This document shows positions 1-35,439 of a DNA stretch of 58,008 nucleotides, one piece after another. Source of the stretch: an uncultured archaeon (GTDB lineage: Archaea; Halobacteriota; Methanosarcinia; Methanosarcinales; Methanoperedenaceae); assembly GCA_902384525.1 (NCBI GenBank), contig CABMCA010000066.1, positions 1-58,008 on the forward strand, in the 5' to 3' direction. Under the pieces are notes generated by a model. The model did no database searches and was not told the DNA's origin. It was given only the letters and a program-made list of their open reading frames with translations. The position numbers were made by a program, and so were the translations under genes. The stretch's first letter is position 1. Each line of letters begins with the position of its first letter.

Positions 1-1
1 C

Positions 2-160
2 AATCCGAAAGGAACATCACAGAATTGCAGTGGATGTGATAGTCCAGTACCGAAAGACCTTTCAGTGAGGATACATTCATGTCCTTTCTGTGGTCTTGTT
101 CTGGATAGGGACACTAATGCTGCAAGAAATATATTAGCAAGATCAAAAAGTACCGCATGA
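2..160 (+). CDS. tnpB: TnpB-like RNA-guided nuclease, C-terminal fragment
   Basis: Fifty-two C-terminal residues of a TnpB/OrfB protein are visible in frame 2. The zinc ribbon is CxxC (NCSGCD) followed by CPFCG, and the last RuvC-like acidic motif is DRDTNAA. The family cleaves DNA guided by an RNA made from the transposon end. A TGA ends the frame at 158-160, but the same frame continues to a TAG at 230-232, encoding a stretch beginning TAGINSC that looks like a usual TnpB tail. The TGA may therefore be a late nonsense mutation that removes only the dispensable tail. The start is outside the window. Confidence 0.85.
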   Translation, partial: NPKGTSQNCSGCDSPVPKDLSVRIHSCPFCGLVLDRDTNAARNILARSKSTA

Positions 161-218
161 ACTGCGGGAATTAACTCTTGCCCGAGTGGACTCAATAGAG
201 CCATGATGACGCAAGACG

Positions 219-239
219 CGCAAGCCCTTTAGGGTTGCG
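219..239 (+). other. IS605-type right-end hairpin
   Basis: CGCAAGCCC, loop TTTA, then GGGTTGCG forms a stem with one bulged G. It sits 8 bases before the inferred right end. In this family the structure is both the transposase recognition hairpin and the 3' part of the guide (omega) RNA. It is similar in position, not in sequence, to the hairpin at 32830-32850. Confidence 0.65.
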
Positions 240-247
240 TAGTTCAC

Positions 248-30122: not shown

Positions 30123-30914
30123 TCACCTTTTAACCATGATCTGAATGGCTGCTTTGCGATTGATCAATGCTTTAGCATTCACCGTCGATAACACAGCAAC
30201 ATCTTCCTTTGCCAGTGTATAATTGCGTCCATCGACTCCTACAAATGTTGGAATGTCTTTTAGCAGACGCACCACAATGTATTCTTTACTTATATCCTTT
30301 TTGTCTGGAAGCTCTTTACTTATATCATTTTTTTCCGGGGATTGTTTACTTATATCGTTTTTCTCCGGAGGTTGTTTACTTATATCGCTTTTCTCTGGAA
30401 GTTCTTTAATTATATCGTTTCTCTGCGTGGGAAGTAATTCGGGTAACCTGTCTTCCCCCGGCAAAACTACAGGCTGGTGATAGACCAGCTTCTCTCTATT
30501 GAATATCCTGTTGACTATTTCACTTCTCCATTCCGTCATCACTTCAAGAAGCCTGTTATAGAATATCCTTTCTTCACTGGTCATGGAATCAAGGTTTTGT
30601 TTTTCCTTCTGTCTTGAAGTCTCATGAAGGGACATTTCTGCATTATACCTTGCTTCATTGATTATTTTGGTCGTCCGCTTATATATTATGCTCTCGATAG
30701 CGTTTTTGACCGTTTTTTGTTCATCCTCGATAATGGCATGCTTTGTACTGTACTGATCATTGATCTTGCGTTTTTCATCTTCAAGGCCCTGGATCTGTTG
30801 GACTATATTCCCGTAAAAATCATGCTCAAGGGGAACAAGTTTCTTTCGCTCCTCTCTTTCTACTTTCAGTATGTTCTCAAGATTTATCCGGGATTTTTCA
30901 GGTTTTTCAGGCAT
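30123..30914 (-). CDS. GINS complex subunit Gins51 with repeat-expanded linker
   Basis: A 263-residue GINS15/51-type subunit of the archaeal replicative helicase complex. The helical A domain covers about residues 1-155, and the small beta B domain is at the C-terminus ([18 protein letters not shown]), the order of Sld5/Psf1-type subunits. Between them four units of a 10-residue repeat (PEKNDISKQ-type, Lys/Asp/Ser rich) make a flexible linker, coded by 30-bp DNA repeats. Start overlaps the end of priS by 8 bases; primase-GINS pairing is common in archaea. Confidence 0.9.
30283..30431. repeat. In-frame 30-bp minisatellite in gins51
   Basis: Units at 30283, 30313, 30343, 30373 and a partial one at 30403 each contain T-TTTACTTATATC followed by a T/C-rich half. 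There are 4.9 contiguous copies with no spacers, all in frame on the complement strand, so copy-number change would alter only the linker length of Gins51. Confidence 0.85.
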
Positions 30915-32295
30915 ATTCAGCAGCTCCGCGGCACATTAGATAGATTGCCGCATATTCTGGCAGGGTGTTCTTACCTTCTGTAACTGTAAAGCTTTTTCCT
31001 TTCATTTCAACTTTTGAATTCTGGGGACGAAGAGGCGGGATAACCTCTATATCAATAATCCTTTCACTGAATACCACGGCATCATTAAGAGGCTCAAAAT
31101 TTTTGAATTCAGAATGTGACAACGGCACGACCCGCATCCCTGAACCGCCATGAAGAGAGGAAGGCAGCCTTATAAGACGCCGGATATCGGCTGTAACGGG
31201 TTCATCTGTATGGCCACCTCCTAAATGAATACTTTCGTCTTGAACGGCTTGATAAACTATTGCATCAAACAGATACGTAATTTTTGGAAAGTCAATTTTT
31301 CCATTTTTAATCATCTCTATAGATTTTGGATTTTCTGCATATTTCTTAAGGTTTCTTAATTTAGCTGTTGTTTCTAAATTAAAATTCCACAAATTATTAA
31401 TAATTAATACGTCTCGAACCTTTTCTTCGGGAATATCTATTTCAGCTGAAATTTGTTTAATATTCATTTTATAATTTTTTGCATCTTGAATTATTCTTTG
31501 TATCATCTCTTCTGAAATGTTTTTGATGTTAGCATTTTTCAAATTATAATTTCTAATTAAATTTTCAATTTGACTTGAAGCTTCCAAATAATCTTTTTTT
31601 GAAATATCTATTAAAAAATGAATTAGAAATTGACTTATTCGTTTACCCCATCCTTTATCAAAAGAAATTATTCTCTTTGATGAATCCAGTTGTATTTTCT
31701 TAAATTTTCCGAAGGTTTGAACCACATGTTTTTCTGGTTCGAAAAAATATTTTGGATCCAATCCCGTAGCGCTCACATAATCCACGATTTCCCTTCGTTC
31801 AGCGCTTTCTAGCCTAAGCACCTTCGGGTCACGCACATGTATATGGTACCCACGACCTCCTGAAAATACTATGCTCACATAATTTTCGGAAAAGCCAAAG
31901 TCCTCAAGGAGAAACTCAAGGAGCTTCCCGGTTTCGGATTTTACATTTGAAAGCATTTCTGAATATGACCTTGCTTTTCCTGGCAAATGGTCTGCATCAA
32001 GATCAAAGATCAGGTCAGCTCCCTGCCATTTTTTCTCTTTCATGGTGCCAGCGCCGGGGAATTCGTAATATGCAGCAGAATGGTACGCATGCGCCGGAAC
32101 CATCCCGCGAATATAATCCAGCGCTTCGTTTTCCCTGGAAAAAGCTTTGTGGCGGCGCATCACGACTTCGGGAAGTTCATCAAAGAATATAAAACCCCAT
32201 TCGCGCCTCGTGAAATCATGAGGCAGGTCAGGTTGGGAGTTCATGTAATAATCTGCAAACCTTTTCCTCAAAAATTCCTTTGTCCTGAAATTCAC
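30907..32295 (-). CDS. priS: DNA primase small catalytic subunit
   Basis: A 462-residue PriS, the catalytic subunit of the heterodimeric archaeal/eukaryal primase. Metal motif DLIFDLDAD carries Asp98 and Asp100, the SGGRGYHIHV motif is at 145-154, and the third motif RLPSSLHGGSG lies near residue 385. It is longer than the 330-420 typical of the family because of an AT-rich, Lys/Asn/Ile-rich middle (about residues 205-345) that looks like an added helical region. It is the first gene of the operon that continues with gins51. PriL is not in the window. Confidence 0.94.
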   Translation of the reverse strand: MNFRTKEFLRKRFADYYMNSQPDLPHDFTRREWGFIFFDELPEVVMRRHKAFSRENEALDYIRGMVPAHAYHSAAYYEFPGAGTMKEKKWQGADLIFDLDADHLPGKARSYSEMLSNVKSETGKLLEFLLEDFGFSENYVSIVFSGGRGYHIHVRDPKVLRLESAERREIVDYVSATGLDPKYFFEPEKHVVQTFGKFKKIQLDSSKRIISFDKGWGKRISQFLIHFLIDISKKDYLEASSQIENLIRNYNLKNANIKNISEEMIQRIIQDAKNYKMNIKQISAEIDIPEEKVRDVLIINNLWNFNLETTAKLRNLKKYAENPKSIEMIKNGKIDFPKITYLFDAIVYQAVQDESIHLGGGHTDEPVTADIRRLIRLPSSLHGGSGMRVVPLSHSEFKNFEPLNDAVVFSERIIDIEVIPPLRPQNSKVEMKGKSFTVTEGKNTLPEYAAIYLMCRGAAEYA

Positions 32296-32446
32296 GAGTT
32301 TTTATTGTCCTGCAAGTTTAAAACCATAATGTATCTAACCGGGTTTATTTATAGTAGTACCACTCTATTAGCGCTGGAAAAGGAGAAGAATTTCAAACTT
32401 ATTATTAATGTGGTTTTTCCATGTTGATCCATAAAACCATAATATT

Positions 32447-32520
32447 GGGCTCGTAGTATAGTCCGGATAGTACTTGGGCCTCCGGAGCCTAGGACCTGGG
32501 TTCAAATCCCAGCGAGCCCG
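32447..32520 (+). tRNA. tRNA-Arg (anticodon CCG)
   Basis: A complete cloverleaf: acceptor GGGCTCG/CGAGCCC with discriminator G, D stem GTAT/GTAC, anticodon stem TGGGC/GCCTA with loop CTCCGGA (anticodon CCG), and T arm CTGGG-TTCAAAT-CCCAG. No intron and no encoded CCA. It would read CGG codons. It lies between priS and a small gene that carries an IS insertion. Confidence 0.95.
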
Positions 32521-32533
32521 TAAATGTCTAAAA

Positions 32534-32672: not shown

Positions 32673-32825
32673 ATGTCAAAAAATTCTAAAACAGGAATCA
32701 TCGTTGAATGGGATAGAGGAATGGCAACAGGGTTCGCATCAAAACAAGAAGCTGAGCGGTTTATTGAGCATATATGCATGAAAACCGCGCCACACCTGGA
32801 TTATAGTATTTACCGTCAAATGTGA
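32673..32825 (+). CDS. Small protein interrupted near its end by an IS605-type element
   Basis: ATG 32673 follows GTGAGGAAGGGTTAT. The 50-codon frame (MSKNSKTGIIVEWDRGMATGF...) ends in a TGA at 32823-32825 that lies in the right end of the IS inserted at 32821/32822. Without the element, host sequence just beyond its left end (near 34117) could continue the frame for about five codons to a TAA, so only the last residues were altered. Family unknown. The product is soluble and charged. Confidence 0.5.
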   Translation: MSKNSKTGIIVEWDRGMATGFASKQEAERFIEHICMKTAPHLDYSIYRQM

Positions 32826-34002
32826 ACCACTCCGGGCTAAAGCCACGGAGCGTCCCGCTGCATCGACCCTCTATGAGTAGTCCTTGACGGGCGTTAATTC
32901 CGGTAGTTCCTACCGTACTCGGTCTATTTTCGATCAATATCGCAGATACCCGATCACGTTTCATTACAAGACCACATTGAGGACACCGATGTATCCTCAA
33001 TGACAGGTCTTTCGGTACAGGATATCCACAGATACAGGTTTGGGATGTTCCAGCCGGATTAACGAACTCCACTACTTTTCCGGCACATTCTGCCTTGAAT
33101 TTCGTGAAATTCATCAACTGATTCCAGCCAGCATCGGATATTGATTTAGCAAGATGATGATTCCGAACCATGTTCTTGATCTGCAAATCCTCAAACTTGA
33201 TATGGTCATAATTATTGACAAGCATTCTTGACGTTTTATGAGCAAAATCTGTTCTTTGATTCCTGATTTTTCTATGGGTTTTTGAAACAATGATTCGCTG
33301 CTTATTCCTTTTCCCCGACCCCTTCTTTTTCCAGCTTAACCGCTTCTGTTCCAGTGTCAGTTTTCCTTCCGATTTTCGCAGGAATTTTGGCGGTTCAATC
33401 TCTTCCCCGCTGCTCAGGGTTATCAGTGAAATTAGCCCTGCATCAATTCCTGTTTTGGTCTTGATCTTGACCGGAGGATGATCTTCAATTTCACATGAAA
33501 ATGAAACATACCACTGGTCAATATCTTTTTTGATCGTACAGGTCTTGATTTTGCCTTCAATCTCTCTATGCTGGATTATCCTGATATTCCCTATTTTCGA
33601 GAGATTGAGTTTTCCATCTTCAAGTCCAAAACCTGATTGGGGATACGTGAAAATGTTGTACCTGTTCCTTCCCTGAAACCGTGGATAGCCAAAGCCATTA
33701 AAGAAATTCTTGAAACTCTTATCGACTCTTTTTATCACATCTTGAAGTACCTGAGAATAGACATCTTTCTGGAATGATGTTTTTGTGACTGCCAATTCTC
33801 TTTTCTGTTCGTAATAGTTAACCCATTCGGGTTTGCCCCACGGAAATACATCAAAATCCTTTTTCAATCTGTTAAGCTCAGCCTGTCGTTTTCGTTCTCC
33901 AAGACAATCGTTATAAAGATGTCTGCAAGTAGCAAGAGTCCTGTTCAATTTAACCTCTTGATTCTTGTTTGGATAGATTCGGAACTTGCAGGATTTATTC
34001 AT
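32761..34002 (-). CDS. tnpB: TnpB-like RNA-guided endonuclease
   Basis: A 413-residue TnpB/OrfB protein. An N-terminal HTH region (NKSCKFRIYPNKNQEVKLNRTL) is followed by the RuvC-like nuclease with Asp in TGIDAGLISL, Glu in IKFEDLQIKNM and Asp in KRDRVSA. The zinc ribbon's second pair is CPQCG, but the first is CIC rather than CxxC, a one-residue deletion relative to the copy at window start. The last 20 residues, from about 32821 to 32761, are coded by host DNA beyond the element's right end. No tnpA is present, so movement would need a transposase supplied elsewhere. Confidence 0.9.
   Translation of the reverse strand: MNKSCKFRIYPNKNQEVKLNRTLATCRHLYNDCLGERKRQAELNRLKKDFDVFPWGKPEWVNYYEQKRELAVTKTSFQKDVYSQVLQDVIKRVDKSFKNFFNGFGYPRFQGRNRYNIFTYPQSGFGLEDGKLNLSKIGNIRIIQHREIEGKIKTCTIKKDIDQWYVSFSCEIEDHPPVKIKTKTGIDAGLISLITLSSGEEIEPPKFLRKSEGKLTLEQKRLSWKKKGSGKRNKQRIIVSKTHRKIRNQRTDFAHKTSRMLVNNYDHIKFEDLQIKNMVRNHHLAKSISDAGWNQLMNFTKFKAECAGKVVEFVNPAGTSQTCICGYPVPKDLSLRIHRCPQCGLVMKRDRVSAILIENRPSTVGTTGINARQGLLIEGRCSGTLRGFSPEWFTFDGKYYNPGVARFSCIYAQ
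32830..32850 (-). other. Right-end hairpin / guide RNA scaffold candidate
   Basis: CTCCG-GGCT-AA-AGCC-A-CGGAG folds into a 9-bp stem with one bulge. It lies 8 bases inside the element's right terminus, as does the hairpin at 219-239. In TnpB systems the RNA covering this end is the omega RNA, with the guide taken from flanking DNA immediately beyond GTTCAC. Confidence 0.6.
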
Positions 34003-34082
34003 TTAGCGATTGCATTCGTTTCATGATAGATATTACTGATGTTAGTAGTGTGAAAGTATTATTTCAAGGGGTCTGATTCATT

Positions 34083-34100
34083 TGCGCCTTGAAAGGCGCA
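34083..34100 (-). other. Left-end hairpin of the TnpB element
   Basis: TGCGCCTT-GA-AAGGCGCA is a perfect 8-bp stem with a 2-base loop, 80 bases upstream of the tnpB start. It fits the subterminal hairpin recognised by the HUH transposase in IS605 elements. It could alternatively terminate the HerA-like transcript. Confidence 0.55.
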
Positions 34101-34128
34101 GGGTTCTCTACTCCTTTGACCCGATTTT

Positions 34129-35439
34129 CTAAAATTTCAGAAGTGCGCTTGGCTCGTCACCACCATGCCAGCTTTTCCTGGGGCGCATACGGACAACATG
34201 AGCGGACTCGGAATTATCATCAACTATGAATGCCACTCCTTTTTCAGTCCCCATCTTTCTCAGGGAGTCACCTATTCCTTCCCGCATATATGTAGGACGA
34301 ACAGCTTCAAGAGCAGTTATGTCATCCTGTGCTGTAAGGCGATGGCAGATTATAATATCACTTTGTGACATGACATCGGGGTGAAGCGCAGCTGGCCTCT
34401 GTGTTGCAAAAATTATAGAAAGACCGGGTTGTCTTCCCTGCCTTAGCCATTCAGTCACAAGTATATCTGTTGCAGGCGTCCTGGCATCACGGGGTAAAAA
34501 TAAATGCGCTTCATCTACGAACATCCAGACCATGGGAATGCCTTCTTCATCCGGACTTTCTCCCATTTTCCTTTGTTCATAAATTCGCCTCGATCTTATA
34601 CTTTCATGATAAATTTTAGAGCCAAGGATCTTAACAGCAATGGCCTTGATATTCTGGTTGTCAATCGAGCTAAGGTCAAGAACGATCACCTTTCCTTTCC
34701 GGATAATATCGGAAAAAATAATCCCTTTTTCATGAAATATTCCCCACGAAATTGCCGAGCGAAAATAGTTATTAGCGGCATTTCGCAAAGTCGTATCCTG
34801 TTCTTTATCCTTTTTTACAAAATCCATGATCGTCTTCAAAGAGATTTCTTGCGCGTTTTCCTTGATATCTTCAATTGTTTTCATTATGAAAACACCTATC
34901 GGACTTACCGGGTCAAGGCCAAATAAAGAACACCAGTCATACCCTGAAAGTTCCGATGGAGGAATTGAAAATGGCTTTACATCAATATGCATTTTTTCAT
35001 AATGCCCAACGCTCCCTTCCGGGACATACAATTCTATGTCGGTACTTACAGGAGAAAAACCCCATTTTGATAAAATATCCTTTTCCTTGGTATTTGGGTG
35101 GCGCATGGTCCAGAAAATTCCCATCGTATCAATAACAAGAGATGCAATATTCACATTATCCGTTAGTGTTGCAAGTTCTTCTATCAATGTTCCCATTGTA
35201 TAGGACTTTCCATATCCGCGTTTACCGCAAATAAGAATAGCATGTGGTCTTAATGCATCCATCTGGACTTTTGATCCCATGGACTTATCAAGAGCGAGGT
35301 ATCTTCCCACGTTCAGAGTACCTGTGTCAGTATCCGTATCTCTCCTTCCGATCACGTATTGTTTATGGGTGACACCTGAGTTTCGAAGATCCTGTGAGAT
35401 TATTTTATCTTCTGAAAGGTTTGTGGTTTCAAGAGGCAT
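34129..35439 (-). CDS. HerA-like DUF87 ATPase
   Basis: A 436-residue hexameric-type ATPase of the HerA/FtsK superfamily (COG0433). Walker A is CGKRGYGKSYT near residue 72, Walker B is MVWMFVDEAHLF near 307, an arginine-finger region is TEWLRQGRQPG, and the sensor is IIFATQRPAAL. HerA translocates DNA for end resection with NurA; a stand-alone HerA paralogue without nurA may serve another DNA-pumping or defence role. No nurA, mre11 or rad50 is nearby. ATG 35439 is preceded by an AT-rich divergent gap with the pilus operon. Confidence 0.85.
   Translation of the reverse strand: MPLETTNLSEDKIISQDLRNSGVTHKQYVIGRRDTDTDTGTLNVGRYLALDKSMGSKVQMDALRPHAILICGKRGYGKSYTMGTLIEELATLTDNVNIASLVIDTMGIFWTMRHPNTKEKDILSKWGFSPVSTDIELYVPEGSVGHYEKMHIDVKPFSIPPSELSGYDWCSLFGLDPVSPIGVFIMKTIEDIKENAQEISLKTIMDFVKKDKEQDTTLRNAANNYFRSAISWGIFHEKGIIFSDIIRKGKVIVLDLSSIDNQNIKAIAVKILGSKIYHESIRSRRIYEQRKMGESPDEEGIPMVWMFVDEAHLFLPRDARTPATDILVTEWLRQGRQPGLSIIFATQRPAALHPDVMSQSDIIICHRLTAQDDITALEAVRPTYMREGIGDSLRKMGTEKGVAFIVDDNSESAHVVRMRPRKSWHGGDEPSALLKF

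What the first reader, a model, noticed from the sequence alone, without database searches (positions are those of the whole stretch)
32761..34115. TnpB that reads past its own right end into host DNA, with a CxC zinc ribbon
The element's right end, defined by a hairpin plus GTTCAC as in the copy at window start, lies at 32822, but the tnpB frame continues to 32761. Its last 20 residues are host-coded. The first zinc half-site is C-I-C against CxxC in the other copy. The guide RNA would start in the flanking small gene.
Basis: partly seen in the sequence, partly recalled or inferred. Interest (0 to 1): 0.6.

Follow-up and report, generated by a model that had tools for sequence, protein, structure and literature searches.

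The report
Frameshifted TnpB in a methane-eating archaeon
This is an ordinary RNA-guided transposon nuclease (TnpB) whose reading frame overruns the end of its element because one base is missing from its tail, while its odd zinc site turns out to be the mark of a widespread, apparently undescribed TnpB variant.

Summary
The element is window 32822-34128 (-). Its right end at 32822 is shown by the uninterrupted orthologous site in Candidatus Methanoperedens BLZ2 (TTTTAG|ATTTCACGGTAAATACTATA) and by 21 other copies ending at the same GTTCAC. The tnpB frame does run 58 nt past it. The cause is one missing base near 32874: 18 of the 21 other copies stop at a TAG 5-15 nt inside the right end; here the shifted frame misses it. 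The missing base lies in a hairpin loop of the strongly covarying guide-RNA scaffold, and the altered residues (377-413) lie in a tail that is dispensable in ISDra2 TnpB. So this is a tail frameshift in an otherwise conserved nuclease gene, not a host-fused TnpB. The guide would be antisense to the end of the small gene and matches the empty site with one mismatch. CxC is not a quirk of this copy: it marks most Methanoperedens copies and some Bacillota, nanoarchaeal and viral TnpBs, and always goes with RuvC-III RDx[VM]SA (or RDxLAA) instead of RDxN. The zinc/RuvC-III segment appears to be exchanged between TnpB backbones. That coupled variant is the interesting part.

The parts
32822..34128 (-). 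whole IS200/IS605-family element (tnpB only), 1307 bp; left end 34128 (one-base ambiguity), right end 32822
   Evidence: precise empty site in BLZ2; shared right end in 21 other copies
32761..34002 (-). tnpB ORF as read, 413 aa; residues 1-376 in the ancestral frame, 377-394 frameshifted but inside the element (394 straddles the end), 395-413 host-coded; stop TAA 32763-32761
   Evidence: dN/dS 0.06-0.14 over codons 2-358 against relatives
32874..32875 (-). site of the one-base deletion (CTCATAGAG here, CTCAATAGAG in the 94-97% identical sister copy); loop of the inner scaffold hairpin
32822..32918 (-). guide-RNA (reRNA) scaffold: hairpin, two-part stem with inner hairpin, terminal hairpin, and GAATT/AGTTC pairing, ending GGTTCAC
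   Evidence: 91.3% of cells pair over 21 copies, 29-40% when slid; 18 pairs with change on both sides
32802..32821 (-). predicted guide, first 20 nt of right flank ATTTGACGGTAAATACTATA, antisense to the end of the small gene
   Evidence: position by analogy with ISDra2 reRNA (PMC8612924); only match in own genome is itself, one-mismatch match at the BLZ2 empty site
34129..34134 (-). left flank TTTTAG, proposed TAM; its last three bases are the stop codon of the HerA-like gene
   Evidence: same TTTTAG in the BLZ2 empty site; most other copies have TTTAY or TTAY at this distance
32923..33060 (-). zinc-ribbon/RuvC-III segment, residues about 315-360: C323-I-C325 ... C340-x-x-C343 ... R349-D350-R-V-S-A
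32673..32825 (+). small gene, 50 aa, convergent; last codon ATC to ATG and stop TAA to TGA supplied by the element, so its length is unchanged against BLZ2
34129..35439 (-). HerA/DUF87-like ATPase gene upstream, left intact by the insertion (stop TAG abuts the element)

Best explanation
A tnpB-only IS200/IS605-family element inserted 3' of TTTTAG, at the overlapping stop codons of two convergent genes, after this lineage split from Methanoperedens BLZ2 (shown: precise empty site; which lineage changed is inferred). Its TnpB should bind a guide RNA made of the 97-nt right-end scaffold plus about 16-20 nt of flank, and cut the empty site beside TTTTAG, which helps the element persist (inferred from ISDra2 TnpB). 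In this copy a one-base deletion in a scaffold hairpin loop shifted the last codons, so the frame misses the usual amber stop in the terminal hairpin and overruns into host DNA until a chance stop (shown by comparison). The altered tail is predicted disordered and corresponds to a part that is dispensable in ISDra2 TnpB, so the nuclease and the guide RNA are probably both still functional (inferred). The CxC knuckle belongs to a recurrent TnpB variant in which CxC and the loss of the RuvC-III asparagine occur together.
For: Empty site. Same right end in 21 other copies, of which 18 have TAG 5-15 nt inside it, 2 overrun (L053, L065) and 1 ends early (window-start copy). Sister copy L064, 94-97% identical, has the base and the normal stop. 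Catalytic D187, E271, D350 invariant; dN/dS 0.06-0.14 for codons 2-358. Deletion in the loop between columns 44 and 49 of a covarying scaffold. AF2 pLDDT under 50 for 364-413. Stops after residue 376 tolerated in the ISDra2 TnpB mutational scan (PMC11844463); window 362 aligns to ISDra2 373. CxC with RDx[VM]SA and CxxC with RDxN in 86 of 86 classifiable rows; 6 of 6 independent pairs, p 0.031.
Against: No RNA or protein data. The deletion could be an assembly error; reads were not available. The gene could already be dead by an unseen substitution. No complete Y1 transposase accompanies the element; only partial Y1 matches were found in the genome. The AF2 model is of middling quality (mean pLDDT 67.5).
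Confidence: 0.78

Rival explanations
1. Assembly or sequencing error: the base is present in the organism and tnpB ends normally at the TAG in the terminal hairpin (388 aa).
For: The single difference that causes the overrun is one base in an AA pair; the genome is a 130-contig assembly.
Against: Neighbouring genes of the window are intact and collinear with BLZ2; two other copies (L053, L065) also overrun, so loss of the stop does happen.
Confidence: 0.15
2. The host-coded tail is a selected fusion that gives this TnpB a new property, for example holding translation through the guide region.
For: The frame is open for 19 host codons.
Against: No other copy shares it; the tail is antisense to a small gene, predicted disordered, and its length is what chance gives.
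Confidence: 0.03
3. The copy is a decaying pseudogene; the frameshift is the first visible step.
For: Frameshift; many copies in the genus are degraded, for example L064, L052, L058, L065.
Against: The rest of the frame and the catalytic triad are intact. CxC is conserved in the family, which shows purifying selection, so CxC is not a sign of decay.
Confidence: 0.2
4. Amber readthrough as pyrrolysine would let all these tnpB frames run past their ends.
For: The usual stop is TAG in all 18 copies that end just inside the right end.
Against: No PylS match over the cut-off in this genome; the window frame contains no TAG up to its TAA.
Confidence: 0.02

Closest known systems
ISDra2 TnpB with reRNA (IS200/IS605, Deinococcus; PDB 8EX9/8EXA/8BF8/8H1J)
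   Same: Homology over residues 2-362 (2.9e-45); D-E-D triad; scaffold at the 3' end of tnpB and right end; guide from the flank; target at the re-closed donor site next to the TAM (PMC8612924)
   Different: TAM-like TTTTAG/TTTAY instead of TTGAT; first zinc pair CxC instead of CxxC; RDRV instead of RDEN; frame overruns the right end; no tnpA in the element
'Typical' TnpB clade, RuvC-III DRDXN (classification as cited in PMC10278001)
   Same: Overall sequence and architecture, all three catalytic acids
   Different: KRDRV: neither the first D nor the N of DRDXN is present; zinc ribbon CxC
TnpBs of clades with rearranged RuvC-III (RIII-r4) or RuvC-II (PMC10278001)
   Same: Departure from the canonical RuvC-III motif
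   Different: Here the catalytic aspartate itself is in its usual place, so this is not a catalytic rearrangement

Membership tests
IS200/IS605-family tnpB element | TnpB protein with OrfB_IS605 and TNB domains | tested here: met
IS200/IS605-family tnpB element | insertion without target duplication, 3' of a short T-rich motif | tested here: met
   empty site TTTTAG|ATTTC, no duplicated bases beyond a one-base ambiguity
IS200/IS605-family tnpB element | subterminal hairpins at both ends | tested here: met
   right-end hairpin covaries; left-end hairpin TGCGCCTTTCAAGGCGCA seen by eye
IS200/IS605-family tnpB element | Y1 transposase in the element or in trans | tested here: inconclusive
   none in the element; two partial PF01797 matches elsewhere in the genome; in relatives L079/L080 the DNA upstream of tnpB looks like the end of a Y1 transposase gene, judged by eye only
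RNA-guided TnpB nuclease | RuvC catalytic D, E, D | tested here: met
   D187, E271, D350
RNA-guided TnpB nuclease | structured right-end RNA with guide from the flank | tested here: inconclusive
   structure supported by covariation; the RNA itself was not seen
RNA-guided TnpB nuclease | guided DNA cleavage | not testable with these tools
   needs an experiment
'Typical' TnpB (DRDXN) | RuvC-III motif DRDXN | tested here: not met
   KRDRV in the window; GRDQV, DRDHV and similar in its CxC kin
TnpB zinc ribbon | CxxC ... CxxC | tested here: not met
   CxC ... CxxC; zinc binding itself not testable here

The most novel reading that the evidence does not exclude
A CxC zinc knuckle plus an RDx[V/M/L] RuvC-III motif define a recurrent, undescribed TnpB variant in which zinc site and active site are structurally coupled, and whose roughly 40-residue zinc/RuvC-III segment is swapped as a unit between TnpB backbones, within Methanoperedens and across phyla.
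Probability: 0.45. Interest if true: 0.55.

Novelty: new variant of a known kind. Interest (0 to 1): 0.38.

Why it matters
It shows how a guide-RNA scaffold that doubles as coding sequence bears on the end of tnpB: the RNA fold is kept while the protein tail and its stop can drift, so apparent host fusions can arise by one indel. The zinc/active-site coupling gives a concrete set of natural TnpBs with which to test whether the RuvC-III asparagine and the CxxC knuckle are needed for cutting, and there is direct DNA evidence of segment exchange between TnpBs.

Tried and rejected
Rfam found no known RNA family (one chance hit). HerA relatives in most other genomes do not carry the small gene beside them; BLZ2 and G004 do. 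Host loci with a guide match: none in the own genome beyond the flank itself. Amber readthrough rejected. Literature on a CxC TnpB: no paper found in the held open-access library describes it, but the main TnpB classification paper did not turn up there. My motif scripts mislabelled L112 and L079/L080 by regular expression; corrected by eye (L112 is CxxC, L079/L080 are CxC) before the pair test.

Full report
What was claimed. A TnpB at 32761-34115 whose frame continues past the right end of its own element at 32822 into host DNA, with a CxC zinc half-site, and a guide RNA starting in the flanking small gene.

Identity and setting. The ORF 32761-34002 (-) is a TnpB by Pfam and NCBIfam and aligns over residues 2-362 to ISDra2 TnpB (2.9e-45). 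The element is the only full-length copy of its kind in the 2.9 Mb assembly; fragments of related copies sit mostly at contig ends.

The right end is real. Against full-length copies from related genomes, homology stops sharply at window 32819-32822 in many. Twenty-one other copies carry the same terminal GTTCAC followed by unrelated DNA. BLZ2 has the orthologous site without the element: HerA-like gene end CTTCTGAAATTTTAG followed directly by ATTTCACGGTAAATACTATAATCC; the window has TTTTAG|AAAATCGGGTC... and ...GTTCAC|ATTTGACGGTAAATACTATAATCC. The element is thus 32822-34128, 1307 bp, with one base of ambiguity at the left. A copy at another BLZ2 locus (L064) is 94-97% identical in its remaining pieces, while the orthologous flanks of the two genomes are 83% and 94% identical, which suggests spread after the split (inference).

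The overrun is a one-base deletion. In the sister copy L064 the tail reads CTCAATAGAGGG and the frame ends NRGSMQRDAPWL-TAG, 15 nt before the end of the element. In the window it reads CTCATAGAGGG; the frame shifts at residue 377, passes the TAG in the terminal hairpin, and ends at a chance TAA, 58 coding nt beyond the element. Of the 21 other copies with this right end, 18 stop at a TAG 5-15 nt inside it. L053 overruns by 5 nt and L065 by 138 nt, each by a change of its own, and the window-start copy has a premature TGA. Overrun is therefore a sporadic accident, favoured by having the stop inside a hairpin.

RNA versus protein. The last 97 nt fold as a guide-RNA scaffold. Over 21 copies 91.3% of pair cells are standard pairs against 76.3% in shuffles and 29-40% when partners are slid, and 18 of 33 pairs show changes on both sides (RNAalifold predicts 23 pairs, 15 of them with such changes). 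The missing base is in the four-base loop of the inner hairpin, so the stems are untouched. The altered protein part starts at residue 377; window residue 362 aligns with ISDra2 373, and stops after ISDra2 376 are tolerated (PMC11844463). AlphaFold2 gives pLDDT under 50 from 364 on (model of middling quality). The catalytic D187, E271 and D350 are invariant, and dN/dS over codons 2-358 is 0.06-0.14 (synonymous sites are near saturation in several pairs, so these are rough). I conclude the nuclease is probably intact. That is inference; no activity was measured.

Guide and target. By analogy with ISDra2 (PMC8612924) the guide is the first 16-20 nt of the right flank, 32821 downward, antisense to the end of the small gene 32673-32825. 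It has no other match in its genome at up to 3 mismatches. In the 33 genomes of the relatives search its only other match, with one mismatch, is the BLZ2 empty site next to TTTTAG. Other copies have mainly TTTAY or TTAY at the same place.

Insertion site. The element landed on the overlapping stop codons of two convergent genes. The HerA-like gene keeps its TAG, which is the end of TTTTAG. The small gene keeps 50 codons, because the element supplies a new last codon (ATG) and a TGA.

CxC. The C-I-C half-site occurs in most Methanoperedens copies sampled, and C-[IL]-C in TnpBs of Paenibacillus, Cohnella, Desulfosporosinus, another Bacillota MAG and a nanoarchaeal MAG. It is always paired with RDx[VM]SA in RuvC-III, while CxxC goes with RDxN: 86 of 86 classifiable rows, 6 of 6 independent pairs on a tree built without the segment, p = 0.031. 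In viral contigs 5 more are CxC with RDxVSA and 6 are CxC with RDxLAA from a different branch; none is CxC with RDxN, and 66 are CxxC with RDxN. In a sample of the phylum, 30 best-hit loci gave 27 CxxC with RDxN, two unreadable, and one CxC, the window itself; Methanoperedens thus stands out in its phylum.

Segment exchange. On the tree of residues 2-312, CxC and CxxC rows are interleaved inside Methanoperedens, with 6-7 changes over the whole tree. L061 is 80-88% identical in DNA to its sisters L053-L055 on both sides, but only 57-59% in residues 318-358, where it reaches 77% (90% in 345-358) with the CxxC copy L057. Between groups, Methanoperedens CxC proteins resemble same-genus (or nearest) CxxC proteins at 69% in the N-terminal part but 55% in the segment; for distant CxC proteins the values are 42% and 64%. 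Exchange explains this best; convergence under a shared constraint is not excluded across phyla.

Limits. No reads, no RNA. Copy sets are best hits and not a random sample. The viral and phylum scans used a CxC query. Literature was limited to an open-access library in which I did not find the main TnpB classification, so the novelty of the CxC variant is provisional.

Noticed in passing
window 32673-32825 (+): Small 50-aa gene with matches in 13 of 33 genomes searched (own included), several copies in some, all in this genus; no Pfam match.
   Followed up: partly
L064 (G018:C15, BLZ2): 94-97% identical copy shrunken by several internal deletions, with right end and scaffold kept: looks like a non-autonomous derivative that could still make guide RNA.
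   Followed up: partly
L061 (G021:C10:105300-107700): Mosaic tnpB: zinc/RuvC-III segment from a CxxC lineage inside a backbone otherwise like CxC copies L053-L055.
   Followed up: yes
window 1-247 and G000:C108 start: The window begins inside another tnpB (CxxC type) with a premature TGA in the first scaffold hairpin; several contigs of the assembly end in such copies, as expected of a multicopy repeat.
   Followed up: partly
L231, L237, L242, L252, L267, L270 (viral contigs): A second, distant TnpB branch with CxC paired with RDxLAA.
   Followed up: no
window 30282-30430: Four tandem 30-bp units in the gene 30123-30914 (-), coding a repeated stretch of the type [10 protein letters not shown].
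   Followed up: no
window 32446-32521 (+): tRNA-Arg (CCG) between the small gene and the primase-like gene 30907-32295.
   Followed up: no
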